Assembly: GCA_012845835.1 (NCBI GenBank)
Contig: JABAKD010000006.1
Location: forward strand, 6,750,318-6,814,317
From: Undaria pinnatifida
Taxonomy: Eukaryota; Sar; Phaeophyceae; Laminariales; Alariaceae
Length of the DNA stretch: 64,000 nt
Direction of reading: 5' to 3'
The notes below the pieces were generated by a model. That model was given only the letters and a program-made list of their open reading frames with translations, did not search any database and had not been told where the DNA came from. Position 1 is the stretch's first letter. Every line of letters begins with the position of its first letter. Of this stretch, positions 5,503 to 25,618 are shown piece by piece. A program made the position numbers and the translations under genes.

Positions 5503-5713
5503 TAGGTCGCACAAGTCATCCCCGACCGCCCTCTCGGGGTCTGGCAGAACGTCGCCACACTGGCAGAGAAAGCCGAACTCGAGCGCGAAGTAGGCGTACC
5601 CGGCGTCTTCGCAGTGAACGTCGCAAGACTCTTGCGTTGTGAACTGGGGATCGATGACCGGAATGTTGGCCATCTCGAAGTCAGACAGAGTCTCGTTGTA
5701 GCACCCCTCATAG
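5503..5713 (-). CDS. Protease gene, exon 12: first part of WSC domain 2
   Basis: Acceptor CAG at 5716-5714 and donor GTGAGT at 5502. In the phase left by exon 11 it reads YEGCYNETLSDFEMANIPV, continuing through CDVHCEDAGYAYFALEFG and CQCGDVLPDPERAVGDD. The spacing YxGCY...C..xC...YxYFALE.G..CQCG is the WSC pattern; WSC domains are Cys-rich and linked to carbohydrate binding in yeast Wsc sensors. The exon ends in phase 0 and the last third of the domain (C...CGG) is missing from the window as far as I can see. Confidence 0.85.
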
Positions 5714-5734
5714 CTGCGTTTTCAGTGCATGAGC

Positions 5735-5812
5735 ATGGAACGGGACGGGACGGGACATGGCGGGACGGGACGGATGGGACGGAACGGGGCGGGATGGGAT
5801 GGCGCGGGACGT
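5735..5812 (+). repeat. GGGAC-type pentanucleotide microsatellite
   Basis: Imperfect run of GGGAC units in the intron just upstream (minus sense) of exon 12. Variants include GGGAT and GGAAC. Confidence 0.85.
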
Positions 5813-6094
5813 CCGTACAGTGTATAGGCCTACGAATAAGAGAAAACCCAATAAAAACATCAGCAGGCTCACGTTTAAGGGGAAGGTAAGAAATATCGTA
5901 TACACACATGGCTTGATAAATCTTGTTCAGCAGCAAGCGCTAAACTAGATGCCCTATATTGGTGTGGCGTATGACTATGAGACGAGACGAAGGCACAGTC
6001 TAGGTTCACCACGAACAAGAAACAGTTGAACAGGAACGCCAAGGTAACTTTTTTTGGCAGACGCGGAGATTTTGGATGAAGATGCTGGGGGAAT

Positions 6095-6165
6095 CGATGC
6101 CCGGGAGATCCGTCGTCTCGACGCGGCGAGCGTCTTGTTGTAGCACCACTCCCAGCTGAGCGAAT
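6095..6165 (-). pseudogene. Echo of exon 12 (5' edge of WSC domain 2)
   Basis: On the minus strand a CAG acceptor at 6158-6156 is followed by WEWCYNKTLAAS, against YEGCYNETLSDF in the real exon. Similarity fades after about 60 bases. The acceptor survives, but the reading frame does not continue like the real exon. It lies about 440 bp upstream of exon 12 inside the same intron. Confidence 0.7.
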
Positions 6166-6754
6166 ACGCGGTGCACAGCCATGAGACGCGACGGCGGTAC
6201 AGTAAACCCCCGCTTTAGCGCTCCCGTCGGAAAAAATGCGATAACTGCAAACGAATAATTACACCGATGCCTAACCGGAGGCAGGTACCAGGGTATATAG
6301 GAGCGGGTGAAACATCGTGCATAAGTTTCCTTTTTTTATATTTTCCTCGGGTTTCTTGCTGGAAACGGTTACGACTGATCAAAATCAAAAGCTCATGCGG
6401 CACGTTGCCGAATGAATAAATTATCCTGTCCACCCAAATAGATAAACAATATGCCGGGGTTCAGGCTGGCTGGGCTCAATCATGGGGAGAAGAATCTCGA
6501 CAGCCGTGCTGCCATCAGGATGGGAGAAGAGAAGAAGATGTAGATATTATCACTGATATATATATTAAAGGACACCACACACCCTGGCAACATCTGGGAG
6601 ACTCAGCCACATATCTTCAAAGAGTAATACGTCCGTAACAACGCGCGACCGGAGAATCACGCAATCTTGCAGAAAGATGAAAATCGACCGTTACAATTGA
6701 TCGAACTCACACAGCCGACGTATATCGAAACAATTCTATGAAGCAGCGCTGTCA

Positions 6755-6840
6755 ACCGTAGTTCTCACTGTGGTACCTGGGGGTTAGTGCTAGGGTCGGT
6801 ACCCTCGTCCGTTAATCTTGAACACCCCAACATAATTAAA
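6755..6840 (-). pseudogene. Echo of exon 11 (3' edge) with its donor
   Basis: Minus strand: VGVFKINGRG corresponds to IGVFRIKNED of exon 11, and both continue to a CCACAGTGAG donor (echo donor GTGAGA near 6756). The 3' half is altered to TTAGGG-like sequence and carries stops. It lies about 300 bp downstream of exon 11 in the intron. Confidence 0.7.
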
Positions 6841-6859
6841 AAAAAAGCATTCCAAGGCT

Positions 6860-7085
6860 GCGGTAGGACTTTTCACACCTCTGATGGCGGTAGCTCGGGG
6901 TCGCTCGCGCGAGAGCCCCCCCCCCCCCTGTTCCTTCCATCTTGTTTTGGTTTTTGATATATGAAACCGGAATGGAATAGAATGGTAAGCTACGCTGCGC
7001 CAAGCAGAAATTGCCTTAGGCCTTTGTTTCAGTGGGGTGCAGGGGTTACTCGGGCGAGTGGCTCAAACCCGGCAGCGAAAAAAGA
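6860..7085. repeat. Dispersed repeat with CTCGCGCGAG ends (about 215 bp)
   Basis: Starts near 'ggggtcgctcgcgcgag', has a C-run, 'gaaaccg', 'ggtaagctacg.tgcgcca', and ends 'tcgggcgagtggctcaaaccc'. A second copy is at 17930-18145 and a reversed, diverged copy at about 21700-21900. Ends are partly inverted, as in a small DNA transposon, but this is tentative. Confidence 0.55.
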
Positions 7086-7133
7086 GGGGTATGATGCTAC
7101 AAGGCCGTAGCCTTGATCAGTAACAGCACTCAC

Positions 7134-7329
7134 TGTGGCATTTGGGCGTTGACGTTCGGATCGATGTCCTCGTTCTTAATCCTGAACACCCCGATCGCTT
7201 CCTTTCCTCCGCATGTGGCCGTCGGGTCTCCCTCGCATGGCATATCGCATTTCGACCTTGCTAGCTCGCCCAGACGCTCGTACTGCTCACTATCCATCGC
7301 ACAGTAGCATTGTTTCCCTTCCTCCACAC
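7134..7329 (-). CDS. Protease gene, exon 11: end of WSC domain 1
   Basis: Acceptor TTAG at 7333-7330, donor GTGAGT at 7133. Joined to exon 10 it reads FFGVEEGKQCYCAMDSEQY..., then CDMPCEGDPTATCGGKEAI and GVFRIKNEDIDPNVNAQMP. The 'G.EEGKQCYC', 'C..PC.GD...TCGG..A..VF' pattern is the second half of a WSC domain. The exon ends in phase 2 and joins exon 12 to give MPHYEGCYNE, so about 13 residues link the two WSC domains. Confidence 0.9.
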
Positions 7330-7489
7330 CTAACGAGGAAGTGACCACAATGATAAATTCTTGCTTCGTTGTTGCACCTTGATTCTTGCTGCGTTATAAC
7401 ATCATCGTTTGCCAGAAGGACGTCGCCATATGCTAGTGACATAATTTTAGTGCTCATACTGGCTGACAACTCTAGCGATCGCGCGCCCA

Positions 7490-7662
7490 CACGCTCTCCG
7501 AAATACTCGAAGAACGTCTCCAGATTCTAGCTCAAACCGAAAATCTTGACGGAAATCTCCAGAGTATAGTGATTTTTAATGGTAAAGTTAATCGAAAACT
7601 TCAACGGCCGCTCACACTCATACACTCGCCGAATAAACTTGAATGGCATTCCAGATTATAGC
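7490..7662 (-). pseudogene. Three to four tandem echoes of exon 10 (3' edge)
   Basis: The plus strand shows 'ccgaaatactcgaagaacg', 'accgaaaatcttgacgg', 'aatcgaaaacttcaacgg' and 'gccgaataaacttgaatgg' at about 7498, 7545, 7585 and 7630. All resemble 'accgaaaaacttgaaggac' at the 3' end of exon 10 (8519 up), and three also keep the 'cagattctagc' part. Spacing is about 45 bp. The donor positions have drifted away from GTGAG. Confidence 0.65.
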
Positions 7663-7732
7663 GGGGCTGTTTTGAGCAGGACTTTTAATGGGTAATGATC
7701 CGATCCGCGGGTCGGGTCAGTAGATTTGCAAA

Positions 7733-8350
7733 GTCGGGTCGGTTTGGGTCGGTTTGGGTCGGTTTGGGTCGGGTCGGGTCGGATCGGGTCGGATCGGATC
7801 GGGTCGGGTCGGGTCGGGTCGGGTCGGGTCGGGTCGGGTCGGGTCGGGTCGGGTCGGGTCGGGTCGGGTCGGGTCGGGTCGGGTCGGGTCGGGTCGGGTC
7901 GGGTCGGGTCGGGTCGGGTCGGGTCGGGTCGGGTCGGGTCGGGTCGGGTCGGGTCGGGTCGGGTCGGGTCGGGTCGGGTCGGGTCGGGTCGGGTCGGGTC
8001 GGGTCGGGTCCGGTCGGGTCGGGTCGGGTCGGGTCCGGTCAGGTCGGGTCGGGTCGGATCGGGTCGGGTCGGGTCGGGTCGGGTCCGGTCGGGTCGGGTC
8101 GGGTCGGGTCAGGTCGGTTCGGGTCGGGTCGGGGCGGGTCCGGTCGGGTCCGGTCGGGTCGGGTCGGGTCGGGTCGGGTCGGGTCGGGTCGGGTCGGGTC
8201 GGGTCGGGTCGGGTCGGGTCGGGTCGGGTCGGGTCGGGTCGGGTCGGGCCGGGTCGGATCCGATCGGGTCAGGTCGGATCGGATCGGGTTGGGTACGGTC
8301 GGGTTGGATACGGTCGGGTCGGATCGGATCGGGTTGGGTACGTCGGGTTG
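7733..8350 (+). repeat. (GGGTC)n pentanucleotide array
   Basis: About 600 bp of GGGTC units with scattered variants (GGATC, GGGTCC, GGTTT). Long open frames of Gly-Ser-Gly-Arg-Val repeats exist in all three plus frames, and complementary Arg-Pro-Asp-Pro-Thr frames on minus, because a 5-bp unit without stops is open everywhere; none should be called a gene. It sits inside intron 10 of the protease gene. Confidence 0.95.
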
Positions 8351-8519
8351 AGCCACCCATCTCTGAGATACTTAGCCTGCCGTCCCGAGCCGACCCGACT
8401 CATGAGTTGTCGAAGACCTCCTTCCCCGACCCGACTCGGCCCGCGAGATTTGAAAAGCTCCTGACCCGTGGAAAGCCCTGGTTAAGTTTATTTGGTGGGT
8501 CTACATGCTGTGATCTCAC

Positions 8520-8632
8520 CGAAAAACTTGAAGGACGTGTCGAGATTGTAGCAGTAGGCCATGCAGTTGTCCTGGGTCATGCCGATGGTGACGCCCTCTA
8601 TAGCAGGCATGTCTTTTTTGTTCGTCATCACG
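8520..8632 (-). CDS. Protease gene, exon 10: middle of WSC domain 1
   Basis: Acceptor TGTGTAG (8639-8633), donor GTGAGAT at 8519. It reads VMTNKKDMPAIEGVTIGMTQ then DNCMAYCYNLDTSFKFFG. This acceptor was chosen because its phase matches exon 9 (AG plus C gives Ser) and because the exon then joins exon 11 in frame as FFGVEEGKQC. A nearer AG at 8614-8613 would break the phase. The CMAYCY pair corresponds to the second and third WSC cysteines. Confidence 0.85.
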
Positions 8633-8759
8633 CTACACAGCGTTGGAAAAACAATAATACAGCACACAATGCAGGAGACGGAGGAAGGGGGGAGGGAATC
8701 ACATGTACTCGATGGCGTTAACAGTCAGGACACCCTGCAGTTCGAATTTACAAAAAAAA

Positions 8760-9612
8760 AACAGAAAAAAAAACTCAAGAGACGGTCGGGGCGGGGGGAG
8801 GGGAAGGGGGGCTGTATTCCATCGTTTGAGGCGATGAGCGCGCCTTATCGTAAGGGCGCCCCGATTTTTTTTGACACCCCTCGTGCTGAAGAGGCCTACT
8901 CCTGCACACCTCGCTCAAGCCAATACCAGGAAGAAATTTAAAAAATGAAAGCGTGACCCGGTGACCAACCCCATGGCCTGGACAGACGCATGCTAAGAGA
9001 GAGGTGCACAGTTTTCTTTCTGAGGAGACCCCTTCCTCACTTAACCAACCTTCAATTCCCAATTGCTTTTCCTAGTCTACCCCCAAATGTTTCGTGCCCA
9101 TTTCGGGACTGCGGCGCTAAAAGGGTTCAGGAGCTCTAGACTTTCTTCACCGAAAAAACTGATTTGACGAAAAATGAAAAAAAAGTGTGCCTAATCGTCT
9201 CGATTTCGTTCTATGCTGTAGACGCTCGGGAGATTCTGGCTGCTGCCTGGTGGTTCTGGCCGCGTTGTCTTTTCTACCACTTGTCATCTATTGAGCCCAA
9301 GGTGCTGATACGTCTGCGACTACTGGCCAACATGACTGATTTGCTGATATCTCCCGATATGCCATGTCGTTGGTCTACTCCTGTGATCAGGAGGGCACAA
9401 GCTCTACCGTCAACGCGTAACGAGGGGCGAAAACAAAACTTGTCCGATGAACAACACCAAGGCCTGGATGCTACTGCAGGTTCACAACGAAAAATATTGC
9501 GTAAAAAAACAAAATGGTGTATTTCCGACAAATTTTGACAAGGAAATCCGTCATTCGGAAAACGTTTTCGCCAAAAAACGGTATACCTCTGCCGTAGCAC
9601 GCGTCGACATGT
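8760..9612. repeat. Intronic stretch with MITE-B remains
   Basis: Holds poly-A and G-rich runs (8750-8810) and, at about 9480-9612, the right half of a MITE-B copy ending 'ggtatacctctgccgtagcacgcg'. A possible left part near 9100-9200 is too diverged for a firm border. No exon was seen. Confidence 0.4.
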
Positions 9613-10104
9613 AACGAATTCCTGGCATAAGTTGTTGTGAGACAACAACGGTGTATACATTTTTTGAAACAACAGATGGTGTTCCGGCAGCATTTTGGTA
9701 GTTCCTCGGAGGACGCCGCAAGTGGGGACTGTGTTCGCTTACAAGCTAGGGTGTGTTTTAGGCGTAGACACGTACGCTCGCGTTCGCAAAAAATATACGC
9801 GCCGTTCGCGTTGTGGTTTTTGCCGTTCGCGGAAATTAAAAGTTGCGTCTGGTGGGAGCATGTATACATTGGAAACTACTCTTATTCTACTCTTTTTATT
9901 TGTTGAGTACCACATCAGCTTGTTCCAAGCCCTGCGTTACGGGCTTTTTTTTCAAGATCTGTGGTTGCTGTTCGCGGATGCCGTTCGCACTTTTTACCGA
10001 AGTTCGCGCGAAACGGGCGATGTTCACACGCTTGTTAGCCGTAAGAATCATACCTGCGTAAAACAATTCCGCTTCTGTTGTAGCACGCGCGGGCATCAAA
10101 ACGT

Positions 10105-10230
10105 CAATTCAACCTCACCGCGATTGACCTCTTCATGCAACCTCGCCGCGAGTGACCTTCATGTGTAACCTCACCGCGCCTGGCCTCTATACGTGCAACC
10201 TCACCACGATTGACCTCTTGTCGCATAATA
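10105..10230 (+). repeat. Four tandem 29-30 bp repeats
   Basis: Units near 10109, 10138, 10167 and 10197 share 'aacctcaccgcgattgacct'-like sequence. The array lies in the intron between exons 9 and 10. Confidence 0.8.
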
Positions 10231-10549
10231 CGTCGTGTTCTAAAATCATTACGAGCGAATGCGGCGTTTCCAATGTTACGCCGCCCAAAAATAAATACAG
10301 ACTCCTTTTCGCATTGCTGAAGCCGGATTATTCGACCACCAACACCGCCGTCGACCTCTGACGCGAATATCAAGGCAACGGTGGGGGGGGCTCGCGTCTG
10401 AGTGTGTCACGTTCCAAAGGCACAGGGTTACTCGCGCGAGTGCCTGCCTGGGTTTTGCAATCTTAAGCCTTTTTTTGTGCTTTTCGGTTTCGCTTGATAC
10501 GCTGCGCCACCAAGGTACGTTCATGTCGGGTTTTTTTTGCACCGTGAAG

Positions 10550-10825
10550 AGCCACTCGCGAGTCGTTCCGCCCCCCCAACTCTTCTTTGACGAAATCGCC
10601 GGTTTCAAAACCAAAACCAGCTCCCGGTCGTGTCTCCTGCAATACGGTGTGTGTCCCTCGACACCCCGACGTCATCGATCGATAGGCCTTTGCACACAAG
10701 GAAATATATGGATACTTTGTTTTCAATCGTATCCTTCCTTGGGTCGAGCAGCCACGAAACGTTCGTTCAAGAAAATCGCGTGTTTTTTTGGGGGGACTAC
10801 AGTAGTATCAGTCTCGCGCGGTAGT
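10550..10825 (+). repeat. Dispersed repeat (copy at 26030-26300)
   Basis: Shares 'gaaatcgccggtttcaaaac', 'gtgtgtccctcgacaccc', 'cctttgcacacaagg' and 'cacgaaacgttcgt' with 26030-26300, and matches 4575-4755 in reverse. No conserved frame was found. Confidence 0.6.
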
Positions 10826-11027: not shown

Positions 11028-12073
11028 CTGTCATTGGCGTCGTCCTTGAAGCAGCCTTTCCACCTCATCCTCTTCCCGTAGATTTTCCCGGGGTAAATCG
11101 ATTCTCCCGTTGACTGACCTCCCACCGCGGTGGTCGGCGACGGGCTTGTCCGACTGCCGTCATCAGACATCGAAGTCGACTCTTCCTCTTGCTCGTCGTC
11201 ATCGTTGCCTGGCGATGATGTTGTTGATGATGATGGAAAGGTTGTTGGCTGTGAAGTCGCCTTAGCGTTTACGACGAGCCCCGTCCCTGGCGATGACCCC
11301 CCGGGCGACTCCGATGGCGACGTCCCTGGCGATGACCCCCCGGGCGACTCCGATGGCGACGGCGTCTGCATCGTATTTTGGTTGTTGTTTTTTGTGGTCG
11401 GACTTTCCGTAGAGCTTTCCGCGGAATTTTCCGCCGTCGGCGATTCCGTCGGATTTTCCGTCGTCGGGCCATCCTTTGATTTTTCGGTCGGTGAAGGAGT
11501 CGGCTTTTCCGTCGACTCTTCCGTCTGCCTTTGCGCTGTCGGCTTTTCCGCTGCCGGTTTCTCTGTTGGCTTTTCCGTGGTTGGCTTCTCCGCCGCTGGC
11601 TCTGCCGTAGGTTTATTAGTCCTACTTTCCGTCGGTGAAGGGGAAGGGGTTGGTTTTTGCGTTGGATTTTCCGTTCGCTTTTCCGCCGTCGGTTTTTCTG
11701 TTGGTTTTTCCGCCGTCGGCGTTTCCGTCGGCTTTTCGGTTGGTTTTTCCGTCGGCAAAGGGGTTGGTTCCGGCGTCGACACCGCCGTAGACTCGCTCGC
11801 TGACTTCGGAGTCGGCGCAGGCGCAGCCGTGGGCACATTCGTCTTAGAGTCCGCCTTGCTGCTGCTCGATTCAGACGTTGGAGCATTCGGTTTCTCGGAT
11901 GCCGACGTCGGCCCATTCGCCGGTTCGGACGCTGACGATGGTTCGCCGGCAGCGGTCGACGACGGCGCCGGAGTGGACGGGCTAGCAGTTGAAGTAGACA
12001 CCACTTTGGGCGCGATGCTAGGGGTCGAGGACTTCTTCGTGGAAACGCTGTCTCTGAAATTGGCCACCACCGT
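11028..12073 (-). CDS. Protease gene, exon 9: end of catalytic domain, Thr/Pro/Ser linker, start of WSC domain 1
   Basis: Acceptor CAG at 12076-12074, donor GTGGAG at 11027 (phase 2). The first codons, TVVANFRDSV, complete the catalytic domain in phase with RQSA of exon 8. About 300 residues of linker follow, rich in Thr, Pro, Ser, Glu and Lys with repeats such as EKPTEKPT and AEKPT, then SPSESPGGSSPGTSPSESPG twice. Such linkers are typical of heavily O-glycosylated secreted proteins. It ends with RWKGCFKDDAND, the opening of a WSC domain. An open frame of similar length on the opposite strand mirrors the repeats and is rejected. Confidence 0.9.
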
Positions 12074-13059: not shown

Positions 13060-13201
13060 CGCCGACTGCCGAATGACCCTCGCGTTGTTTTCCGTCGCGC
13101 TTCCCTGCAACACGTTGGCGTACTTCTTGTCAGGGTTCGAGAAAATGTTCACGCGCGGAGCCGATACACAGCCCGACTCGTAAGCCATGATGGTTCGATA
13201 C
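13060..13201 (-). CDS. Protease gene, exon 8: catalytic domain with Met-turn
   Basis: Acceptor CAAG at 13205-13202, donor GTAAGT at 13059. In phase it reads YRTIMAYESGCVSAPRVNI, then FSNPDKKYANVLQGSATEN and NARVIRQSA. TIMAY holds the Met of the Met-turn found below the zinc site in metzincins, and FSNPD with the final NARVIRQ helix are usual at this place in reprolysin-like M12/M72 peptidases. Phase 2 in, phase 0 out. Confidence 0.93.
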
Positions 13202-13249
13202 CTTGAAAAAACAAAACAACACCGAGGGGGGAGGGGGGGAGGGGGAGGA

Positions 13250-13450
13250 GGGAGGAGGCGTACTCATTTGTTGCTTGCCTTACTCGTCTGACCATTGACC
13301 ACGCCTCCGTTTCGAGACGGAGCACTGTTCCTACTCCTAACACAGACACCTCCAACATTTGGGCGCTCATTACGTTTCTTCCACGCATTACCTGAACAGC
13401 ATTTTGCGTGTTTTATCTCCTTCCTCACTGGCCGTCTGTGGCGACCACCT
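13250..13450 (-). mobile_element. LINE 3'-end fragment
   Basis: Same terminal block as 18672-18900: after a G-rich run, 'gtactcatttgttgcttgcc', 'gaccattgacc', 'cgagacggagcac', 'caacatttgggcgctcatta' and the 'gtctgtggcgaccacc' stretch. It is truncated to about 200 bp. Confidence 0.65.
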
Positions 13451-13750: not shown

Positions 13751-13954
13751 TCTCACATACCGATATTTGAACCCCTGACTACAACCTTACTTGTGCTCGA
13801 GGTTAACCAATAGACCACCGGGGCAATCGGCAGGCGCATCGGGGGTAGGGATAGAAGTCGCGTTTCGGGTAAATCGTTTAGGCCATATTTTGTGAGCGCC
13901 TTTGAGCCAACAAAACGGTAACATTCGACTGTTTTTGTTTTACGTGGTATGACG

Positions 13955-14060
13955 CGTTTTGCTGGTGTTTTCGACACGATGACATGATCACCCTCGAGGC
14001 GGACACGCAGTCCGGCTCGTAAGCCACATGATGGGTCGATGCCTTGAACATCATGTTAAT
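13955..14060 (-). pseudogene. Echo of exon 8 (5' edge) with its acceptor
   Basis: Minus strand: a TTCAAG acceptor near 14050, then ASTHHVAYEPDCVSASRV, against YRTIMAYESGCVSAPRV of exon 8. The Met of the Met-turn is lost (TIM to THH). Weak similarity may continue for another 60 bases. It lies about 800 bp upstream of the real exon in the same intron. Confidence 0.8.
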
Positions 14061-14407
14061 ATGGGGGAGGGGGGGAGGGAGATGGAAGTCAACCCACTTT
14101 TCAAACGCCAATCCTAAAGAAACAGCCAGCAAAATTCACTAGTCGGGAACTCCTTTAGGCCAACCCACGACCCTAGTGCTTGGCCAAACCTCCCCTCCTC
14201 CCGAGATGTCTGGTTTTCTCGAGCTTTCTTGCCCTCCGACGTAGAATAAACCCAATAGATTAGCCATTTAACCGCAATGGGATGGATGCTACTCATTGCA
14301 GAAGTAATGCTCCGGCCATATACGTATATTCAATGCTGGACTAAACAAGGTATCTGGTAGTCAGGACCAGAGGCCGAACCGTATATGAAGTATACCACGC
14401 CCTACGC

Positions 14408-14860
14408 TGTACACCACACCGCCTGCGGTATACCACCCCGGTGATAACTCATTTTAAAACCCACAATTTATCACCGGGGGTTGTGGTAATCTATCACCGG
14501 CGGCGTCATATACACACCGCCACATGCGGTAGGCGTCTTGTGTACTCACGCGTTCTTTCCCTCGCAGTATCGGAAGCCGCGCAAGCGTAAACGAGGCCCG
14601 CATCCGAGCTAACTTTGTCGTGGTTCGCGCCCCAAGTCGTGTCGAGATCTCCGGTAGAAAGTACGCCACTCACCGTACTATCTCGTAGACTAATAACCGA
14701 TCGTCGATTCATCCTGAGCCAACTCAAAGTCCTCGTGATTGACCAAGCGCCCCCTAGGGTGCGGATTAGCGTTAGGGTCGGGATTGGGTCAGGATCCCGA
14801 GGTGGCTGGTGTAACTCATGCGTTCTTTCCCTCTCACTACTAGATGCCGTACCGTATACG
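14408..14860 (-). pseudogene. Two echoes of exon 7 (3' edge) with intron sequence
   Basis: At about 14541-14650 the minus strand retains GANHDKVSSDAG and a GTGAGT donor near 14540, against GANHDKVNSDVG in the real exon. It lacks the HExxH part, and the frame breaks at each end. A shorter copy at about 14820-14860 keeps only the exon end and a GTTA-type donor. Intron sequence beyond the donor ('accgggggt', 'ctacgctgtacaccaca') is also repeated, so the duplicated unit crossed the splice site. Confidence 0.85.
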
Positions 14861-15033: not shown

Positions 15034-15222
15034 GCGTTTTTTCCCTGGCAATGTCGAAAGCCGTAGGCGTAAGCATGGCCCACATCCGAGTTAACTTTGT
15101 CGTGATTCGCCCCCAGATTGTGGCCGATCTCGTGTATGTGCGAGAAATTCACGAGGCAGTTGGTGTGCACGACGGAGTAGCCGTACTTCTCAAAGGCGGC
15201 CGTGGGGCTCCGCATCGAAAAC
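15034..15222 (-). CDS. Protease gene, exon 7: zinc-binding site
   Basis: Acceptor CAG at 15225-15223, donor GTGAGT at 15033. It reads FSMRSPTAAFEKYGYSVVH, TNCLVNFSHI, then HEIGHNLGANHDKVNSDVG and HAYAYGFRHCQGKNA. HEIGHNLGANHD is the complete metzincin motif HExxHxxGxxHD: three zinc-ligand His and the catalytic Glu. 'GF.MRSPTAAF..Y.YSVV...C' before it is typical of bacterial-type reprolysin-like M12/M72 peptidases. It should hydrolyse peptide bonds outside the cell or in the wall. Nothing in the core looks inactivated. Confidence 0.96.
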
Positions 15223-15700: not shown

Positions 15701-15781
15701 GCCCCCTCCCTCCCACTCTCGGTTATGCGTCTACCGCTAAGCATGAAATGAGTGCACCCTCCCCCCCCCTCCCTCTCTCAC

Positions 15782-15933
15782 CCGATGCCACACGTGTCGA
15801 GATAAAACCCCACTAGCTGGACGAGATCGGCGCCGTACTTGTCTCTGAGGGCGTGGACCCCGCTAGCTTTTCCGGTTCCCTTGAAGAGGTCGAAAACCGC
15901 ATCCGCGATGTCGTCGGTCTCGTCGTAGTCGAT
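15782..15933 (-). CDS. Protease gene, exon 6: catalytic domain
   Basis: Acceptor CGCAG at 15938-15934, donor GTGAGAG at 15781. It reads IDYDETDDIADAVFDLFKG, TGKASGVHALRDKYGADLV and QLVGFYLDTCGIG. 'V..LRDKYGADLVQL.......CGIG' is the conserved strand-helix segment before the zinc site in reprolysin-like peptidases. Phase 0 in, phase 2 out; the final Gly is split with exon 7. No echo of this exon was seen. Confidence 0.93.
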
Positions 15934-16032
15934 CTGCGGGTGAGTTTTTGTTTTCGGGCATTTTTTTTGTTAGTTTTGTCCTTTTTTTTTCCCAGCATCC
16001 GGTAGCACAAACTGAGGAAAATAAATTTGACT

Positions 16033-16879: not shown

Positions 16880-17480
16880 AATTCCGGGAAAAAAACGATT
16901 TATCGCGGCGATCTTGGCCAACATCGGCCTGAGAATTTCTCTAGCAGATCTTGGATTAGACGCGGCGCAATTTCATGTTCTCCACACACTTCGTTCGACG
17001 ACATCAACAACAGCGTCGTGAACTCTGAACGTGGCGAGCTCGTTAGGGGCTCCGACCCCCCCTTGGTGTACAGCGCCCACTCTACGGCCTGTGATTTGTG
17101 GGGGGCGCCGATCAGGCCTCTATTATAAACACATTTGGCGGCTGGCGTGCAGAAAGCTGAGACAAAAACTCTCTATCGTCTCCCAACGGGCGAAAACCAG
17201 AATTTTGAGAGGATGTGACGGAAGACCACAGGACAACGCAAGCAACATTTCACGCCCTAGGGCATGCATCGAGATTAACTCTTCAGAGCTGTCACCTACA
17301 CTCATTGTGGCCTCGTCCGGAACAAAGAGGAATGACCATGGGTTGTCTCTATCTCGAGATCGAAGGTCAATCGTGTTTGGTCGACAGTGTTGATCAATGC
17401 TTGGTGAAAATAGACAAGTTGACCTGTTGGACCGCATAACCCAAAAAAATAGCCAGAAAGAAAACATTTTAGTCATTCTT
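16880..17480 (-). other. Unidentified protein-like stretch in intron 5
   Basis: Two abutting minus-strand frames have ordinary protein composition, unlike the surrounding repeats: one with VPDEATMSVGDSSEELISMH and ALGREMLLALSCGL, the next with KSQAVEWALYTKGGSEPL and IAPRLIQDLLEKFSG. There is no repeat match in the window. It could be a decayed mobile-element gene or chance; plus-strand frames are also open. No family recognised. Confidence 0.25.
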
Positions 17481-18447: not shown

Positions 18448-18633
18448 CCATTCCATGTGCACCATGTTCAGGGACACTTCCGCTCCTTCTCCCAGAGAGT
18501 CCTTCAAAGCGTTGTTCGCCCCCTCATACGCGGTGATGATGTCCGTCTCCATTTGATCATTACTCCTCGTAGGGCCATCCAAATCGTCGGTCCCGCTCTT
18601 CGATTTCGTCGTGTACAGCACCATTACATCGAT
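18448..18633 (-). CDS. Protease gene, exon 5: start of catalytic domain
   Basis: Acceptor TTTTTCAG at 18641-18634, donor GTGCGT at 18447. It reads IDVMVLYTTKSKSGTDDLD, QMETDIITAYEGANNALKDS, then GAEVSLNMVHMEW. 'IDVMVLYT....' followed by an amphipathic helix with 'I..A...AN.AL..S' is the beginning of reprolysin-like M12/M72 catalytic domains. Both phases are 0, so it joins exon 4 (SSTT|IDVM) and exon 6 (HMEW|IDYD). Confidence 0.93.
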
Positions 18634-18671
18634 CTGAAAAACGGCAATCGAAAAAGTTTGCACCATTTAGG

Positions 18672-19440
18672 GCGGGGAGGGGAGGGGGGGGGGGGCTTAA
18701 TTGTTGCTTGCCTTAGTCATTTGACCGTTGACCACGACATCCCTGTCGAGACGGAGCACCTTCACCTTTCCTACTCCTAATAGAGACACCTGTGGGCGCT
18801 CATTATGCTTCTTCCATAAATTACATAGAAACTGTTTGCTTTTCCTATCCCCGTCCTGTTTCGCCGTCTGCGGCCACCATCTATCTCCTAGGATAGCGAT
18901 CGTTTTCTCGCTACTCTTTTAGCCTGCCAACCTCTTCCATGTCACATACGTCTAATTTCTTCGTCTCCTCCTTTAACGCATCGCGCTGCTCCTTGTATAT
19001 TTCACATTCTCCTACTGTGTGAGTTCTACCCTATTATTGTGCCACACGGGCACATATTTACAGCCACGTCTTCCTCCTCCCGACCACTGGTATATATCTT
19101 TCTTCTTTCTGGTAGGTCCAGGTCCCCTACACGAAATCGCAGTTTCAGCTTTTTCGCGCAGTCCATTCGGCCGTGCAAATCCCTTTTCATAACCAATATC
19201 TTCCCTCAACCCCCCGCATATCTCTAAGTGCTTCTCCTCTTTCATCTTATTTATTGGCGCTAGCCTTTCCTTTTCTTCTATTCTTTCATTTACTTCTGTC
19301 TAGTACCCGCCAAACTTCTCTATAGACAGCAGTACCTCTTCTTGGTTTCCCTCTGAACCCTTCCACATTTTCTCGACTACGTTATCCCATCTTATTCCAT
19401 TTTATTATTTTCTCCCATACAGCCCAATCAGCTATGGGAG
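18672..19440 (-). mobile_element. LINE 3' end (about 770 bp), decayed
   Basis: Minus-strand pieces in order: IADWAVWEKIIKW, NVVEKMWKGSEGNQEE, LSIEKFGGY, EEKHLEICGGLREDIGYEKG, MCPCG-like 'NMCPCGTII', VGECEIYKEQRDALKEETKK, a 'WWPQTAKQ'-like stretch, the terminal NVGGVSxRSRNG block, then GGCAAGCAACAATTAAG and C-runs. The CxC...H...C knuckle with ECE.YKE after it is usual C-terminal to the RT of LINE ORF2. Frames change several times; 5' truncated. Confidence 0.75.
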
Positions 19441-20065: not shown

Positions 20066-20149
20066 ATTATGGAGGAAGATGGGGGGGGGGGCCCGGGTGG
20101 ATAAAGAAGGTTGATAGATAAGCGGAGGGTGCGGGGGCTAGGGGAGGGA

Positions 20150-20810
20150 GGCATCGTTTGCCATAGCGATCGACTTTGTCATGTACAGCACCAGTACGTT
20201 CATCTGAACGCGATATATAGCAGCAACATCATGGGGGCATGTGAAGGGGGGGGAGGGGGGGGGTAACATCGGATTATGGGGGAACAGGGGGGGGGGGAGA
20301 GAATGGAGGGGGGTCGTAGACCGTCTACATCGTCGGTCGCGGTCATGGACTCTGTCATGTACAGCACCGTTAAATCAATCTGAACGCCGTATCAGCAGCA
20401 TCAGAGGGCTTGAAGGACTTAATGAATAGCGGGGAGGATGGAGGATGGAGGGTGGGGGAAGGGGGAAGGGGGCGGGGGGAGAAAAGCATTGTTGGTCTCG
20501 GCCATGACTTTGTCGAGGACAGCATCATTGCATCTATCTAAACGAGGCAGACACAGCGACCACATCACAGCGAGTTTCGTGGCATTTGGGGGGTGGGGGT
20601 GGGGGGCAAGGGTGTAGGCATTGCAATGCATGGGTATGGTATGTAAAATCATAAACCCTCGCATTCCTGCAATGCCGGGACGGAGGAACGTCGGGTTTTC
20701 ACCGACTAGGTTGGGGGGGATGGGGAAGGGCGTGGGTGGTCCCAGTCGTCCACTCTGTCGTGTGCAGCAACATTGCATCAATCTGAAGACGATAGCAGCT
20801 GCGACCAACA
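20150..20810 (-). pseudogene. Tandem array of four echoes of exon 5 (5' edge)
   Basis: Minus-strand copies start at CAG or TAG acceptors near 20200, 20378, 20556 and 20796 and read MNVLVLYMTKSIAMANDA, IDLTVLYMTESMTATDDVDG, IDAMMLSSTKSWPRP and IDAMLLHTTEWTTGT, against IDVMVLYTTKSKSGTDDLDG in the real exon. Each keeps only the first 40-70 coding bases, then a C-rich (plus: G-rich) spacer. Units are about 175-240 bp. A fifth, weaker copy (SAVVFSTKSVVS) lies near 21180-21220. Confidence 0.9.
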
Positions 20811-21225
20811 TCAGAGTGGGTCGGGGAATGTTGGGAGGGAGGAAGGGGGGGGGCGGGGAGGGGGAGGGGGGAGGACGGGGCGAAGAGGAAGGGCGGGGGC
20901 ACGGGGGAGGGGGGGGAGGGGGGGGGGGGGGTTGACCAGGTTTCACGTGCGCCATGGTATGCGTTTTTGGAGAGCGTCGAAAAGGCCATTGCTTCTCCTG
21001 TGGCGCTCCCACGGTTTGGGTTTTCCCGTTTTGGATACGCATCACGGCTTTCTGCGTTATTAGATTCTGAAGAGGCTAACCCTTTGGAGGTTTCGTAGCG
21101 AAAACCATTGAAGAACGATGAGTAACGATTATGGGCTCGGCCACTCGAAATAGCTTGGATGACATGATTGACGCGTTCAACCATGGAGACGACACTTTTT
21201 GTCGAAAATACCACAGCACTTTTCA

Positions 21226-21470
21226 CGGGTCATGCATGATCCGGCCCGCGTGCCCGGTTCAAAAGCTCGCGGATTGAGTCGAGTCGGGTCGGGTCGGGTC
21301 GGGTCGGGTCGGGTCGGGTCGGGTCGGGTCGGGTCGGGTCGGGTCGGGTCGGGTCGGGTCGGGTCGGGTCGGGTCAGGAGGTTTTCACGTCTCACGGGTC
21401 GGGTCGAGTCGGGTCGGGTCACTCGGTGTCCAACCCAACCCGCGAGACGCGATCCGACCCGTGAAAAAAA
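21226..21470. repeat. GGGTC array inside a small inverted-end element
   Basis: About 20 GGGTC units (21280-21375) sit between 'ttttcacgggtc' at 21226 and its inverse 'gacccgtgaaaa' at about 21457-21468, with 'ggcccgcg' and 'acccgcgaga' inside the ends. The flanks of the 7733-8350 array carry similar 'cgcgggtcgggtc' and 'gcccgcgagatttgaaaagc' sequence, and 38505-38560 holds an isolated end. This suggests a mobile element whose pentanucleotide core expanded. Confidence 0.6.
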
Positions 21471-21539
21471 AGTACTTTCTGGGTGACTGCTTAACCTAAA
21501 ATCTTCGGGAATGGTGTCGTTCTTGTTTCGCTTGGTATG

Positions 21540-21566
21540 GATTTTTTTTATATATATATATATATA
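21540..21566 (+). repeat. (TA)n microsatellite
   Basis: Short TA run after a T-run, ending in TATATGTACC. Confidence 0.8.
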
Positions 21567-21699
21567 TGTACCTAGGTTGCACTTTTAGTTTACTCAAAGT
21601 ATCGTTTTTTTTTTATTGTTTTGTGAGGTCAAGAGCTCCACACGTGAGGAGCCTCATACCAAGGCTTCGGTACCGAGAGCTTACTGTTTTCCACCACCA

Positions 21700-21900
21700 G
21701 GGGTCAGAGCCACTCGCACGAGTAAACTCTAGTACCTCACCGGCAAAAACAAGTCTAGGCGGTTGTGCTTGGCGCAGCGTAGCGCTAACCATTCCATTGT
21801 GGATTCAGTTTTCGCTAAATTAAAACGTCACGAAAGCTTAAGCGTTGAAGGAATAGAGGGGTCGCTCACGCGAGCAACCCCGAGCCACACAGCAAAAAAA
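21700..21900. repeat. Reversed, diverged copy of the CTCGCGCGAG-end repeat
   Basis: Runs from 'gagccactcgcacgagtaaa' to 'ggggtcgctcacgcgagcaa', with 'ttggcgcagcgtagcgctaacc' inside as the reverse of 'ggtaagctacgctgcgcca' at 6990. Confidence 0.5.
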
Positions 21901-21949
21901 AACAGGCCCCAAAAGTGACCCCCCCCCAACACACTTAGGCTATGAGGCT

Positions 21950-22175
21950 ATGAGTAGGCGCAAGGTTGCCGAAGTCCGTCTTACGAGCGGTTCTCGGAAG
22001 GATGCGGTTCACCCTTCATGCGACTCGCCGAACACCTCACGGCGCCTCGCGCTTGGCGCAAGCAATGTCTGCCTGGTTGGTGAAAACCCGACATGCTCCG
22101 TCCCGGCATATCAGGGATGCGAGGGTCTGCGGTCATACGACTATGGCCTTACACAAACTGAGTACAACCCCCCCA
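21950..22175 (+). repeat. SINE-like repeat, opposite orientation
   Basis: Reads in the family's own 5' to 3' sense on plus: 'gaagtccgtcttacgagcgg', 'tcatgcgactcgccgaacac', 'tgtctgcctggttggtgaaa', 'catgctccgtcccggcatat', then 'aaactgagtaca' and a C-run. The C-run is downstream of the tail here, as expected if it belongs to the element's 3' end. Confidence 0.7.
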
Positions 22176-22359
22176 CCCGGCCTTGGTCCACCGATGAACA
22201 AAGAAAGCCATGGCCTAGGTGTTCCAAGCAAGTAGCATGTGTATACTGGGGAAGGGGGCGTATCCGAAGCGCGCCACCGGGAGATAGAAGTACGAGACGG
22301 TTCGCAGCACGGCGATACGTACTCGTACAGGCCGCACAACCGTTTCTATGCGGGTGACG

Positions 22360-22700
22360 GCGCACGCTAGGGTAGAGAGGTCCTCACGAGAGTCATCCCG
22401 CGCTGCTAGGGGCGCGTGCAGCAGAGAGTTTCTGAGCTCCCTACACGAGGAGAGAGAGAGAGAGAGCTCAGTATCTCACCCCGAAGCATGCCTTCGGAGG
22501 GCATGCATATATCGCGCAATCCGACAAGAAACTTCTACGCGCTAGTCCTAAAACAAACACATACTCGAAAAAGCATCAGACTAACCGGTGGAGGTCCTCG
22601 CTCGAGTGGAGCTCAACCGGCCGGAAACGCTGGGCCCTAAAATGTATAACCCCTGCCGTGGGATGACTCCCATACCGTAGGTTACATGCCAGGGTATGGG
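22360..22700. repeat. Dispersed 'gaggagctca' repeat
   Basis: Contains 'tctgagctccctacacgagg', 'cttcggagggcatgca', 'acgcgctagtcctaaaacaa' and 'cgctcgagtggagctcaacc'. The same order recurs at 29150-29480, 33530-33730 and 34080-34660. About 300-450 bp, noncoding, borders unclear. Confidence 0.5.
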
Positions 22701-23298
22701 GTTGCACCCTCTCTTTTTGGTCTTAAGGTTGCTCACCCAAGACCTTGTTCCGAGAAAAACGTGAAAAACACAACCAACCAGCTAAGCAATCGCATGGCCT
22801 AGGCATTAAAACAACCAACGTCAAGTCACTAAAAGTACTCCAGGCGATGTCGGTGGTAGTTGTCGCTTAGTTTGGGTCCCGCTACGGTCAGAAAAAGAAA
22901 GAAAAAAAAAAAAACGGCCAAACAGCGCTAGCCTTATCGTGGCACACGGTCTTTTTGGTATGATTGTTAAAACTATCATTGTTCCCCTCCGATAATATAG
23001 CGCTGGTCGATGTCGGTCTGATATAAATCGAATATCCTTCCTCCATGCAGTACCATCTCTCCTATGACCCTCTGCCAACCATTTCCCCATTTCCTTTCCC
23101 CACTTATTTTCATTATAGCTACTACCGATATATTTTGTATCCTAATGCTCATCAACAGCCCATCCCCGGGTCATAGGCCGCGGCCCTCATTGTTCATCGT
23201 TTTTTTGTTTTTGTTAGACTTGGGTCTCCTAACAGGAGTCACGTGCAGCAGGCGTGATCAAGGAGTGATCCGCGATGACCCGAGCTCTCCGACAGCTA

Positions 23299-24240
23299 CA
23301 GCGCTGGTCCCCCCGCAATGCCGACAACGGCACTATACAGGAAGTAGGCACTGTTGAATCGGTACCACAGGGGTACCCCTACTGTAATGGGAGGGAAATA
23401 AATGTGTGGTATAGTAGGTTCCCGTCGTGCCAAGCGATTTTACCGGCATTATACCGGAACAGCGCTGGTCCCCCCGCAATGCCGACAACGGCACTATACA
23501 GGAAGTAGGCACTATTGAATCGGTGCCATAGGGGTACCCCTACTGTAATGGGAGGGAAATAAATGTGTGGTATAGTAGGTTCCCGTCGTGCCAAGCGATT
23601 TCACCGGCATTATACCGGAATTAGGCACTATTGAATCGGCACAATAGGGGTGCCCCTACTGTAATGGGAGGGAAATGTGTGGTATAGCAAGTTCCCGTCG
23701 TGCCAAGTGATTTCACCGGCGCTGCACCGGAAATAGGCACTATTCAAACGGCACTACACCGGAAATAGACTTTCAACAGGCACTATAACGGAATAGGTAA
23801 TATTCAACCGGCACCATACAGGAAATAAACACTATTTAACCGACACTATATAGGAAATATACACTATTCAATCGGCACAACAGGGGTACCCCAACTGCAA
23901 TGGGAAGGAAATGGTAGGTTCCCGTCGTGCCAAGCGATTTCACCGGCACTATACCGGAATAGGCACTATTCAATCGGCACTATAGGGGTACCCCTACTGT
24001 AATGGGGGAAAATGTGTAGTATGAGGTTCCCGTCGTGGCAAGCGATCTAACCAGCATTGTACAAGAAGCAGGCACAGTTGAATCGGCACATCAGGGGTAC
24101 TCCTACTGTCACGGGAGGGAAACATGTGGTACATAGCAGGTTCCCGTCGTGCCAATCGATCTAACCGGCACCATACCAGAATCAGGGACTCTCCAATCGG
24201 AACAACAGGAGTGCTCCAACTGCAATAGAAAGGAAAAGAG
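23299..24240 (+). repeat. Satellite-like tandem array, 161-bp unit decaying rightward
   Basis: The first two units (23299 and 23460) are almost identical over 161 bp: 'cgctggtccccccgcaatgc', 'ggcactatacaggaagtagg', 'ggggtacccctactgtaatg' and 'ggttcccgtcgtgccaagcg'. Four or so further units to 24240 are increasingly diverged and of variable length. It lies in intron 4 of the protease gene. Confidence 0.85.
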
Positions 24241-24254
24241 TGGGAGCGATCAAT

Positions 24255-24400
24255 AAGCTCTCACCGTGGTTGATTGAAGGCACGAGGACACGGCCGAATG
24301 GGGCATGGCAACCTCCTCGCATCTACAAGCGACAGAGTCGATGCTCACTCGTCTCCTCGACGCCTTAACCATACCCTATCATTCCCCTATCATTGAAGGC
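24255..24400 (-). pseudogene. Echo of exon 4 (3' edge) with its donor
   Basis: Plus strand 'gggcatggcaacctcctcgc' and 'actcgtctcctcgac' match 'gggcatggcgacctcctcgg' and 'gaatctcctcgac' of exon 4. The minus-strand end 'CAATCAACCACG' is followed by a GTGAGA donor, as in the real exon. Stops interrupt it. It lies about 1.1 kb downstream of exon 4 in the intron. Confidence 0.75.
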
Positions 24401-24604
24401 GTGCCGCAACGTAGAAGTGGCGTTTTTGTTTTGAAAAAAAATGTTTTGCTGAATGACGGGGACCCTCATCGCATATTCGCCGGAACGCTGATTTTTTTTA
24501 TACCTAGGCCATGTCATGAGTCTGTTCATCGAGTTTCGCTTTCGGTTTATCCGCCCATAAATACCTTACTTTTTTGCCTTAGAAAGCAAACAGAACTCTT
24601 CAAG

Positions 24605-24910
24605 TGAGGAGCCTCATAAAAAGAAAGGGTGTACCTCTACCGCAGCATGTGCCACCCATCGCCAAAAAAAGGTGTACCTCTGAGGACATAATATCGCGCT
24701 CTTTAAATCAGGAGCCTCATGAAAAGAACTGTTGTGCCTCCACCGTAGCATGTACCACCCATTGCCAAAAAAAGGTGTACCTCTGAGGACATAATATATC
24801 CCTCTTCAAGTCAGGAGCCTCGATGCCAAGAAATGATGTACCTCTACCGTAGCATGTGCCACCCATTGCCAAAAAAAAGGTGTACCTCTGAGTACATAAT
24901 ATAGACACAC
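24605..24910 (+). repeat. Three tandem units of about 105 bp made of MITE-B ends
   Basis: Each unit has 'aggagcctca', 'gtacctctaccgtagcatgt', 'gccacccattgccaaaaaaa' and 'ggtgtacctctgaggacata'. Both arms of the MITE-B terminal motif occur in each unit. A fourth partial unit follows at 25028-25070. Confidence 0.75.
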
Positions 24911-25022
24911 AACCCGTAATACGCGCGATCGGAGTATCACACACAGCTTGCAAAGATGAGTTTCGACAAAATCTTCGATCTCACAGCTGGAGTGTATTTT
25001 AATTTTTATAATAATATAGAGC
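24903..25022 (+). repeat. ATG-peptide repeat (dispersed, conserved start codon)
   Basis: 'cgcgatcggagtatcacaca', 'agcttgcaaagatgagtttc' and 'cttcgatctcacagctggag', encoding MSFDKIFDLTAGVYFNFYN from 24956. Other copies: about 36225-36345, 36630-36735, 54440-54530 (minus), 59720-59840, 63235-63300 and 63365-63475 (minus), with looser relatives at 6590-6725, 41430-41520 and 49460-49545. The start codon and the 'DLTAGV' / 'KLTADV' peptide are kept more than the rest. Function unknown. Confidence 0.6.
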
Positions 25023-25279
25023 TCTCCAAGTCAGGAGCCTCGATGCCCAAAAAAGGTGTACCTCCACCGTATAATTTGATGAAAATATCTTCTCAAAAAA
25101 TGGTTGTATTCATCGGGCGAGATGAGGCCCTCTCGTCGTGGTCGGGAGACTGGACGATACGTTCGCTGAGCATGGTTTCCTATTACTATCTGTTGCCATC
25201 CAACAATGTCCAAGCATGGTCGTCAGCGCAGATTCATTCACAACAATCCCCTGAAGGAAAAAGACATTAATGGAACCCC

Positions 25280-25425
25280 CCTCCACAAAAACGCTTGGTG
25301 CAAGCAATGCCTGCCTGGTTGGTGAAAACCCGACTTGCTCCGTCCCGGAATGGTAGAGATGCGACGGCCAATGGTCCTACGACTACGGTCATGCACAAAC
25401 CGCGTACACCCCCCCCCCCAAAAAA
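25280..25425 (+). repeat. SINE-like repeat, 3' part, plus orientation
   Basis: 'tgcctgcctggttggtgaaa', 'ttgctccgtcccggaatg', 'actacggtcatgcacaaacc', 'gcgtacaccccccccc'. Truncated 5'. Confidence 0.65.
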
Positions 25426-25501
25426 AAAAGCCAAAGTTTTTTAGGGGAAAACCATGGGGAAGAAAGTTCGATGGATCAATCGGTTTCATTTAGGAGCTCA
25501 C

Positions 25502-25618
25502 GGTGGTCGACGACTGGAGGATACGGCCGCTGGGCATGGCGACCTCCTCGGAGCTGATGCGACGGAGCCCTTGCCCGTGAATCTCCTCGACATCGTTCGG
25601 GCCAGCGTGAAGGTATCT
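25502..25618 (-). CDS. Protease gene, exon 4: probable end of propeptide
   Basis: Acceptor CCGCAG at 25624-25619, donor GTGAGC at 25501, 117 bases, phase 0 both sides. The frame that fits exon 5 reads RYLHAGPNDVEEIHGQGLRR then ISSEEVAMPSGRILQSSTT, giving ILQSSTT|IDVMVLY at the junction. A basic-then-Ser/Thr stretch just before the catalytic IDVMVLY strand is where the propeptide would be cut. Other frames are also open, so the reading rests on phase and context. An echo of its 3' edge (24255-24400) supports it as a true exon. Confidence 0.6.

What the first reader, a model, noticed from the sequence alone, without database searches (positions are those of the whole stretch)
5503..25618. Introns full of partial exon 'echoes' at the splice borders
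Seven exons of one protease gene have decayed partial copies next to them: exon 4 (24255-24400), 5 (20150-20810), 7 (14541-14650, 14820-14860), 8 (13955-14060), 10 (7490-7662), 11 (6755-6840) and 12 (6095-6165). Copies downstream of an exon hold its 3' edge plus donor; copies upstream hold its 5' edge plus acceptor. That is what tandem duplications with one end in the exon and one in the intron would leave. It suggests intron growth by repeated border-crossing duplications, leaving many decoy splice sites. I know of tandem exon duplication, but not of a gene where nearly every intron carries truncated border echoes.
Basis: partly seen in the sequence, partly recalled or inferred. Interest (0 to 1): 0.88.

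Follow-up and report, generated by a model that had tools for sequence, protein, structure and literature searches.

The report
Exon-edge fossils in kelp introns
Introns of this kelp protease gene hold decayed partial copies of the edges of neighbouring exons, best explained as leftovers of small tandem DNA duplications that are also seen in other genes and loci of the same genome.

Summary
The gene is a metalloprotease-WSC gene of the kelp Undaria pinnatifida. Scanned against the window or the window plus flanks, 8 of 16 exons have a same-strand copy nearby at E<0.02: seven as truncated border-crossing echoes (exons 4, 5, 7, 8, 11, 12, 13), one (u2) as whole-exon copies. Exon 10 passes only in a local scan (0.012). 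"Nearly every intron" is overstated: 4 of 15 introns hold border echoes at E<0.02. Copies always lie on the side tandem duplication demands; none of these eight exons matches nine other loci. Codon-position differences (0.21/0.19/0.32) fit a dead copy beside a live exon. It is not special to this gene: border echoes occur at 7 of 43 exons tested in other Undaria genes, a chaperonin included, and 22% of 120-bp segments in nine sampled loci have a direct relative within 2 kb against 4% inverted. Best reading: common small tandem duplications of non-coding DNA, some with one end in an exon. The kind is known; the density is notable. Use of the spare splice sites was not testable.

The parts
42041..42200 (-). 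3' part of exon u1 (acidic/serine-rich region); the exon's start is not defined
   Evidence: open frame and GT donor; no nearby copy
37198..37301 (-). exon u2 (propeptide) copy used in the public gene model; acceptor unclear
   Evidence: tblastn of P0001
37722..37824 (-). second copy of exon u2
   Evidence: E 1.7e-8
38002..38105 (-). third copy of exon u2
   Evidence: E 2.2e-12
36863..36930 (-). exon u3, no nearby copy
   Evidence: weak tblastn matches of P0002-P0005
32649..32735 (-). exon u4, no nearby copy
32149..32256 (-). exon u5, no nearby copy
28655..28793 (-). exon u6 (start approximate), no same-strand nearby copy
25502..25618 (-). exon 4
   Evidence: E 0.009
24254..24361 (-). echo 4a: 3' edge of exon 4 plus intact GT donor
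   Evidence: E 8e-5; no other close copy listed in the genome
20738..20789 (-). echo 5a: AG acceptor plus 5' edge of exon 5
   Evidence: E 0.11, 0.0014 in local scan
20488..20635 (-). echo 5b: AG acceptor plus 5' edge of exon 5
   Evidence: pairwise alignment only, 72% identity
20314..20384 (-). echo 5c: AG acceptor plus 5' edge of exon 5
   Evidence: E 6e-4
20170..20208 (-). echo 5d: AG acceptor plus 5' edge of exon 5
   Evidence: E 0.73 alone; resembles echo 5c (20169-20228 with 20345-20403)
18448..18633 (-). exon 5 (start of reprolysin domain)
15782..15933 (-). exon 6, no echo
15034..15222 (-). exon 7 (zinc-site sequence HEIGHNLGANHD)
14396..14656 (-). echo 7a: 3' half of exon 7, intact GT donor and about 160 bp of intron, 80% identity; unit about 480 bp
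   Evidence: E 7e-10; extended
14800..14856 (-). possible small second echo of exon 7 (GT now AT)
   Evidence: E 1.9, 0.012 in local scan
13954..14077 (-). echo 8a: AG acceptor plus 5' edge of exon 8, with frame-breaking indel
   Evidence: E 3e-6
13060..13201 (-). exon 8 (YRTIMAY)
11028..12073 (-). exon 9 (Thr/Pro/Ser linker); no echo of its two ends, middle not scanned
8520..8632 (-). exon 10 (WSC domain)
7494..7531 (-). weak echo 10b of exon 10 3' edge
   Evidence: E 0.49, 0.012 in local scan
7516..7697 (-). further weak exon 10-like pieces
   Evidence: E 3.0 for 7569-7516; pairwise only for 7697-7580
7134..7329 (-). exon 11
6733..6830 (-). echo 11a: 3' edge of exon 11 plus intact GT donor
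   Evidence: E 0.014
6018..6194 (-). echo 12a: AG acceptor plus 5' edge of exon 12
   Evidence: E 3e-5
5503..5713 (-). exon 12 (second WSC-like domain)
3466..3559 (-). echo 13a: AG acceptor plus 5' edge of exon 13
   Evidence: E 0.11
2118..2229 (-). echo 13b of exon 13, followed by CCCTAA-like repeats
   Evidence: E 7e-8; no other close copy listed in the genome
1918..2000 (-). echo 13c of exon 13 (border and AG included in the pairwise alignment)
   Evidence: E 4e-6
1703..1745 (-). echo 13d of exon 13 (border and AG included in the pairwise alignment)
   Evidence: E 0.018

Best explanation
The echoes are fossils of small tandem duplications. Non-coding DNA of this kelp is repeatedly duplicated head to tail, in units of roughly 0.1 to 0.5 kb, sometimes longer. 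Now and then one end of the unit falls inside an exon. The copy still joined to the rest of the exon goes on being spliced; the truncated copy with its duplicate splice site stays in the intron and decays without constraint, and repeats that insert later push it away. Duplications with both ends in an exon, or that upset splicing, are presumably removed by selection, so border-crossing ones are what is seen. Shown: local, direct, border-crossing, on the expected side, including unspliced intron sequence, neutral in codon pattern, present in other genes, and set in a wider local direct-repeat background. Inferred: the molecular step (replication slippage or template switching, or unequal exchange), the selection, and that the spare splice sites are mostly unused.
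For: Window gene: 8 of 16 exons with a nearby same-strand copy at E<0.02. Exon queries against 90 kb of nine other loci: 1 of 17 (exon 9 entered as two), exon u1, which has no echo. Side rule: of 21 border echoes at E<0.02 (10 in the window gene, 11 elsewhere) all 21 have the 5' edge upstream or the 3' edge downstream, about 15 independent events (3e-5 under a coin toss). Intron sequence is copied too: in 17 echo alignments 5 to 148 intron-side columns at 60-84% identity. Mismatch by codon position 0.213/0.193/0.318 over the 17 and 0.216/0.197/0.315 over the 10 at E<0.02: positions 1 and 2 changed freely, with extra change at 3 as expected if the exon also takes synonymous changes. Background: direct 19% against inverted 3% in the window, 22% against 4% in nine sampled loci; 226 direct against 30 inverted local pairs in 240 kb (73 against 14 merged regions), identities from about 60% to above 95%; at 90-95% identity the alignment spans a median 0.89 of the spacing, that is head to tail. 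Other genes: 7 of 43 exons with splice-border echoes.
Against: A long part of the unit is visible only for echo 7a (about 330 of 480 bp); for the others a short copied insertion is not excluded one by one. At 70-90% identity the median length/spacing of local pairs is only 0.34-0.54. The window gene has more echoes than the other genes (8 of 16 against 7 of 43, p 0.016), and the C26 paralog has no splice-border echo in 14 exons, so the rate is uneven. Loci L005 and L014 show almost no direct excess. Genome-wide DNA searches did not list even the source exons, so they exclude close copies only. Exons of other genes were picked by family match or by eye, without transcripts, and E-values refer to search spaces of different size.
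Confidence: 0.86

Rival explanations
1. Exon borders are specifically targeted: a splicing- or transcription-linked process, or the C-rich tract before acceptors, makes duplications start at splice sites.
For: Exon-overlapping segments have local direct relatives more often (38.6% of 70) than gene introns (20.7% of 386); the window gene is richer than other genes; acceptor-side echoes of exons 5 and 13 come in several copies beside C-rich tracts.
Against: In like local scans random intronic 150-bp pieces have same-strand relatives in 33 of 80 cases and exon queries in 8 of 17. An exon excess is expected because one copy is held constant by selection. Donor-side echoes have no C-tract. Ends inside exons vary (exon positions 27, 56, 86, 135 and others).
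Confidence: 0.07
2. The echoes are working sequence: alternative or decoy exons whose splice sites regulate splicing of the gene.
For: AG is kept in 14 of 15 acceptor-side echoes (p 0.012 at an assumed 0.64), or 10 of 11 when only echoes at E<0.02 are used (p 0.053).
Against: Codon positions 1 and 2 diverge by about 20%; frame-breaking indels in 7a, 8a, 11a, 12a; copies lack the rest of the exon so cannot replace it; GT is kept in 8 of 12 donor-side echoes (p 0.55) or 8 of 10 at E<0.02 (p 0.24); copies of one array are not independent.
Confidence: 0.05
3. The copies are pieces of dispersed repeats or of gene fragments carried by mobile elements.
For: Dispersed repeats are common in these introns, and one family lies next to several acceptors.
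Against: Echoes 4a and 13b match only themselves in the 511 Mb genome (common words are skipped and diverged copies are missed there); none of the eight exons with copies matches nine other loci; the copies are on the gene's strand and on the expected side.
Confidence: 0.02

Closest known systems
Tandem genomic duplication model of intron gain (Rogers 1989, known to me through; potato RdRp case, PMC4974935, abstract, introduction and start of methods read; review PMC3443670, passages)
   Same: Tandem duplication of a genomic segment with splice signals; in the potato case the unit crosses one intron-exon boundary, as here.
   Different: There a new intron forms. Here no new intron was shown; the existing intron holds the truncated exon edge, which decays.
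Internal gene duplication (Gao and Lynch 2009, PNAS; seen only as a citation and a reference entry)
   Same: Duplication inside genes across exon-intron structure, cited as commonly observed.
   Different: Here decayed, truncated border copies in a kelp; I have not read that paper and cannot say what it covers.
Inter-boundary and intronic exon duplications found by Exonize (PMC12343006, passages)
   Same: Exon-like matches that cross exon borders or lie in introns are a recognised class; the passages say that significantly more genes have partial, inter-boundary and intronic events than full-exon ones.
   Different: No brown alga appeared in the passages I saw (the table of 20 genomes was not seen); that tool needs annotation and a coverage cut-off, which truncated, decayed copies may not meet.
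Tandem exon duplication and mutually exclusive exons (PMC9013439, passages)
   Same: Tandem copies of exon sequence within one gene.
   Different: Copies here are truncated, without the second border, and several are frame-broken; the exception is the u2 exon in triplicate.

Membership tests
Internal tandem duplication crossing an exon-intron border | Copy lies near its source, same strand | tested here: met
   All 21 border echoes at E<0.02; distance up to about 6 kb (exon 13)
Internal tandem duplication crossing an exon-intron border | Copy contains exon and unspliced intron sequence across the splice site | tested here: met
Internal tandem duplication crossing an exon-intron border | 3'-edge copies downstream, 5'-edge copies upstream | tested here: met
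   21 of 21 echoes at E<0.02 (probability)
Internal tandem duplication crossing an exon-intron border | Head-to-tail junction and full unit | tested here: inconclusive
   Echo 7a: about 330 of 480 bp alignable; not examined for the others beyond the alignments; local pairs at 90-95% identity span a median 0.89 of their spacing
Tandem genomic duplication model of intron gain | A new intron forms between the duplicates | tested here: inconclusive
   The exons line up with those of the C26 paralog and no extra intron was recognised, but no transcripts were available
Mutually exclusive or alternative exons | Copies keep both splice sites and an open frame | tested here: not met
   Border echoes are truncated, several frame-broken, changed at all codon positions; the u2 copies are not resolved
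M12B reprolysin-like metalloprotease with WSC domains (the host gene) | Reprolysin domain with HExxHxxGxxHD zinc site, and WSC domain | tested here: met
   PF13688 7.7e-10, PF13582 9.5e-10, PF13583 1.7e-8, PF01822 3.5e-23 with two stretches; motif in exon 7 (motif name recalled)

The most novel reading that the evidence does not exclude
Kelp introns carry a readable genome-wide record of small tandem duplications, with exon edges as fixed reference marks that date each event, and the duplicated 3' splice sites are kept by selection (14 of 15 still AG; 10 of 11 among the echoes at E<0.02) as decoys that tune where splicing occurs.
Probability: 0.08. Interest if true: 0.75.

Novelty: new variant of a known kind. 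Interest (0 to 1): 0.55.

Why it matters
Intron growth is often put down to mobile elements. Here a second source is visible: small tandem duplications that can be counted and perhaps dated, because one copy of each border-crossing event is held in place by the exon. Undaria and its relatives would allow the rate, the unit size and the tolerance of the spliceosome for duplicate splice sites to be measured across many exons. It is also a warning for annotators: the public model of this gene (P0001) lacks exons 6, 10 and 11 and most of exon 9.

Tried and rejected
Chance similarity: rejected for 8 of 16 exons; exon 10 and the second exon 7 piece are borderline. Dispersed repeats: no support. Assembly artefact: rejected, since copies differ by 15-40%. 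Alternative exons: rejected for the border echoes on frame and codon pattern. Whether the exon 12 echo is shared between the window gene and the C55 paralog: undecided, identities too close. Eight long ORFs of the window, four of them in 43-64 kb, gave no family over its cut-off, so no control gene came from there.

Matches at E of about 0.02 or less that are not border echoes: WD40-like exons matching each other or nearby stretches in L005; CCT exon G to the exon D stretch (0.005) and CCT exon C on the opposite strand (0.011); exon 9 of the C55 paralog upstream within or near its coding repeat (1e-4); the last exon of the C26 gene, duplicated past its stop; u1 to + strand 46433-46500 (0.008) and, just above, to minus 36899-36793 (0.022); exon 13 to 15756-15938 on the opposite strand (0.02); u6 on the opposite strand in the local scan (0.013).

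The weaker acceptor result (p 0.053) lowered the novel case from 0.10 to 0.08. RNA-structure, fold and structure-search tools were not used; they do not bear on the question. Paper searches behind the statement that I found no report of this in kelp; most subscription papers are not held.

Full report
WHAT THE GENE IS. The window lies at C55:6750318-6814317 of a 511 Mb genome in 68 contigs. A predicted Undaria pinnatifida protein (P0002, source eukprot, name beginning jgi/Undpi1) is encoded at 100% identity over its first 87 residues on C26 of the same genome, and the published Undaria assembly is 511 Mb at 50.14% GC (PMC7058681, passages), so I take the organism to be Undaria pinnatifida. P0001 is the public model of the window's own gene: it carries stretches identical to the exons here but lacks exons 6, 10 and 11 and most of 9. 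Brown-algal homologues place at least six exons upstream (u1-u6) and one downstream (exon 13, outside the window), so at least 16.

THE ECHOES. I aligned each exon with its flanks against the window on both strands, scored against dinucleotide-shuffled queries, then did the same for the extra exons on the window plus 20 kb on each side. Exon 9 was tested by its two ends and u1 by its last 160 bp. Eight of 16 exons have a nearby same-strand copy at E<0.02: u2, 4, 5, 7, 8, 11, 12, 13. Seven have none (u1, u3, u4, u5, u6, 6, 9). Exon 10 is weak (0.49), but in a scan limited to 3 kb on each side it reaches 0.012, as does the second exon 7 piece. Seven of the eight are truncated, border-crossing copies; u2 is a whole-exon copy present three times. 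Several copies exist for exon 4 (two), exon 5 (four, one at E<0.02) and exon 13 (four, three at E<0.02; for 13c and 13d the border is included in the pairwise alignment, not in the scan hit). Border echoes at E<0.02 lie in 4 of 15 introns; 5 with the u2 copies and 6 with exon 10. Three introns (4-5, 7-8, 11-12) hold both a 3'-edge echo of the exon before and a 5'-edge echo of the exon after.

CONTROLS. Seventeen exon queries (exon 9 as two) against nine loci elsewhere in the genome: 1 of 17 had a match at E<0.02, exon u1, which has no echo. Echoes 4a and 13b each matched only themselves in the whole genome; but these searches skip common words and did not list the source exons either, so they exclude close copies only. 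Opposite-strand matches at E of 0.02 or less: u1, exon 13 at the limit, and u6 in the local scan.

WHAT KIND OF COPY. In 17 echo alignments (7 of them, 5a, 5b, 5d, 7b, 10a, 10b and 13a, are not at E<0.02) the exon part has 66-85% identity and the intron part 60-84%, so genomic and not spliced sequence was copied. Mismatch by codon position is 0.213, 0.193, 0.318 (third against first two, Fisher p 1e-5), and 0.216, 0.197, 0.315 (p 4e-4) for the 10 at E<0.02. A copy under coding constraint should show far fewer changes at positions 1 and 2; a dead copy beside a live exon shows this pattern. Echo 7a runs on into the intron, so that about 330 of a 480 bp unit can be aligned. For echoes at E<0.02, 3'-edge copies are always downstream and 5'-edge copies always upstream: 10 in the window gene and 11 in other genes, about 15 independent events (3e-5 under a coin toss). 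Tandem duplication requires this; free insertion does not.

SPARE SPLICE SITES. Reading the aligned dinucleotides (borders corrected by eye for the chaperonin exon, L007 and the C55 paralog), AG survives in 14 of 15 acceptor-side echoes and GT in 8 of 12 donor-side echoes (7b left out). With 0.64 expected, p is 0.012 and 0.55. For echoes at E<0.02 only, it is 10 of 11 and 8 of 10, p 0.053 and 0.24. Copies within an array are not independent, alignments that cross a border may favour a matched AG, and 0.64 is my assumption from the position 1-2 divergence. I treat this as a lead and no more.

HOW GENERAL. A 120-bp segment of the window has a same-strand relative within 2 kb (score 150 or more) in 19.3% of 1457 cases, inverted in 3.1% (long simple arrays masked). 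By class: overlapping exons 4-12 38.6% of 70, introns of that stretch 20.7% of 386, the rest of the window 17.4% of 1001. In nine 10-kb loci on eight contigs, chosen by position before looking (20 asked, 9 existed), it is 22.2% of 2136 against 3.9%, from 0.8% (L005) to 44% (L003). In 240 kb of held sequence there are 226 direct and 30 inverted local pairs (73 and 14 merged regions), with identities from about 60% to above 95%, which suggests a process both old and recent. In like local scans, random intronic pieces of the window gene have same-strand relatives in 33 of 80 cases and opposite-strand in 13 of 80; exon queries 8 of 17 and 1 of 17. I see no sign that exons are a target.

OTHER GENES. 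C26 paralog, 14 exons: no splice-border echo, one duplication past the stop of the last exon; local direct similarity there is lower, 11.0%. C55 paralog at 7.28-7.31 Mb, 7 exons tested: border echoes at exons 5, 10 and 12. A chaperonin (PF00118) gene, 7 exons: exon D with three downstream border echoes (E 1e-8, 2e-8, 0.016), exon E a weak one (0.11). Fifteen exons of five further loci, picked by eye from 61 high-scoring of 2410 ORFs before the echo scan: L006 (5e-12), L007 (0.014) and L011, the window's flank (three echoes on both sides, 3e-11, 1e-6, 4e-5). In sum 7 of 43 exons, against 8 of 16 in the window gene (p 0.016, or 0.033 without u2). The four WD40-like exons of L005 gave only matches to each other and to nearby stretches that are not side-correct border copies, and count as having no echo. 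Search spaces differ in size between these loci and the window.

READING. Small tandem duplications are common in the non-coding DNA sampled from this kelp; border-crossing ones leave exon-edge fossils, and this gene is rich in them. The molecular step is inferred. [quoted passage not shown] Saccharina introns average 1,057 bp against 703 bp in Ectocarpus (PMC4421812, passages). I found no report of exon-border echoes in kelp in ten searches (listed in Tried and rejected), which is weak evidence of absence.

LIMITS. No transcripts, no second brown-algal genome, and a capped amount of genome sequence. Whether a 20-25% local direct-repeat level is high for eukaryotes could not be measured here, since no other eukaryotic genome was searched.

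Noticed in passing
window 13233-13390, 18671-18816 (minus); L020 5230-5334; L015 5829-5885: A dispersed repeat ending in a C-rich tract sits 32-42 bp upstream of real 3' splice sites in three genes: 4 of 16 copies found in 246 kb (one of the four is the query copy itself), against 0.10 expected (p 3e-6). It may supply, or insert into, polypyrimidine tracts.
   Followed up: partly
window 1640-2118 (minus): Exon-13 echoes 13b-13d are each followed by CCCTAA-like, telomere-type repeats where similarity to the exon ends.
   Followed up: no
window 37198-38105 (minus): Exon u2 is present three times; the copy in the public model has no clear acceptor by eye, so which one is live is open.
   Followed up: partly
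C55:7283001-7307000 (L018, L017, L019): In this paralog exons 7 and 8 are fused; the intron between them is present in the window gene and the C26 gene, so it was probably lost here.
   Followed up: no
window 7733-8339 and 21278-21375: Long arrays of a GTCGG-type pentamer (about 120 and 20 units) in introns 10-11 and 4-5.
   Followed up: no
window 23298-24222, 24596-24904, 38656-39486: Tandem arrays of 112-161 bp, 103 bp and 36 bp units inside the same gene, in line with continuing local duplication.
   Followed up: partly
L016 8142-8477 (C26 gene, joined coordinates 17142-17477): The last exon of the C26 paralog has a partial tandem copy just past its stop codon.
   Followed up: no
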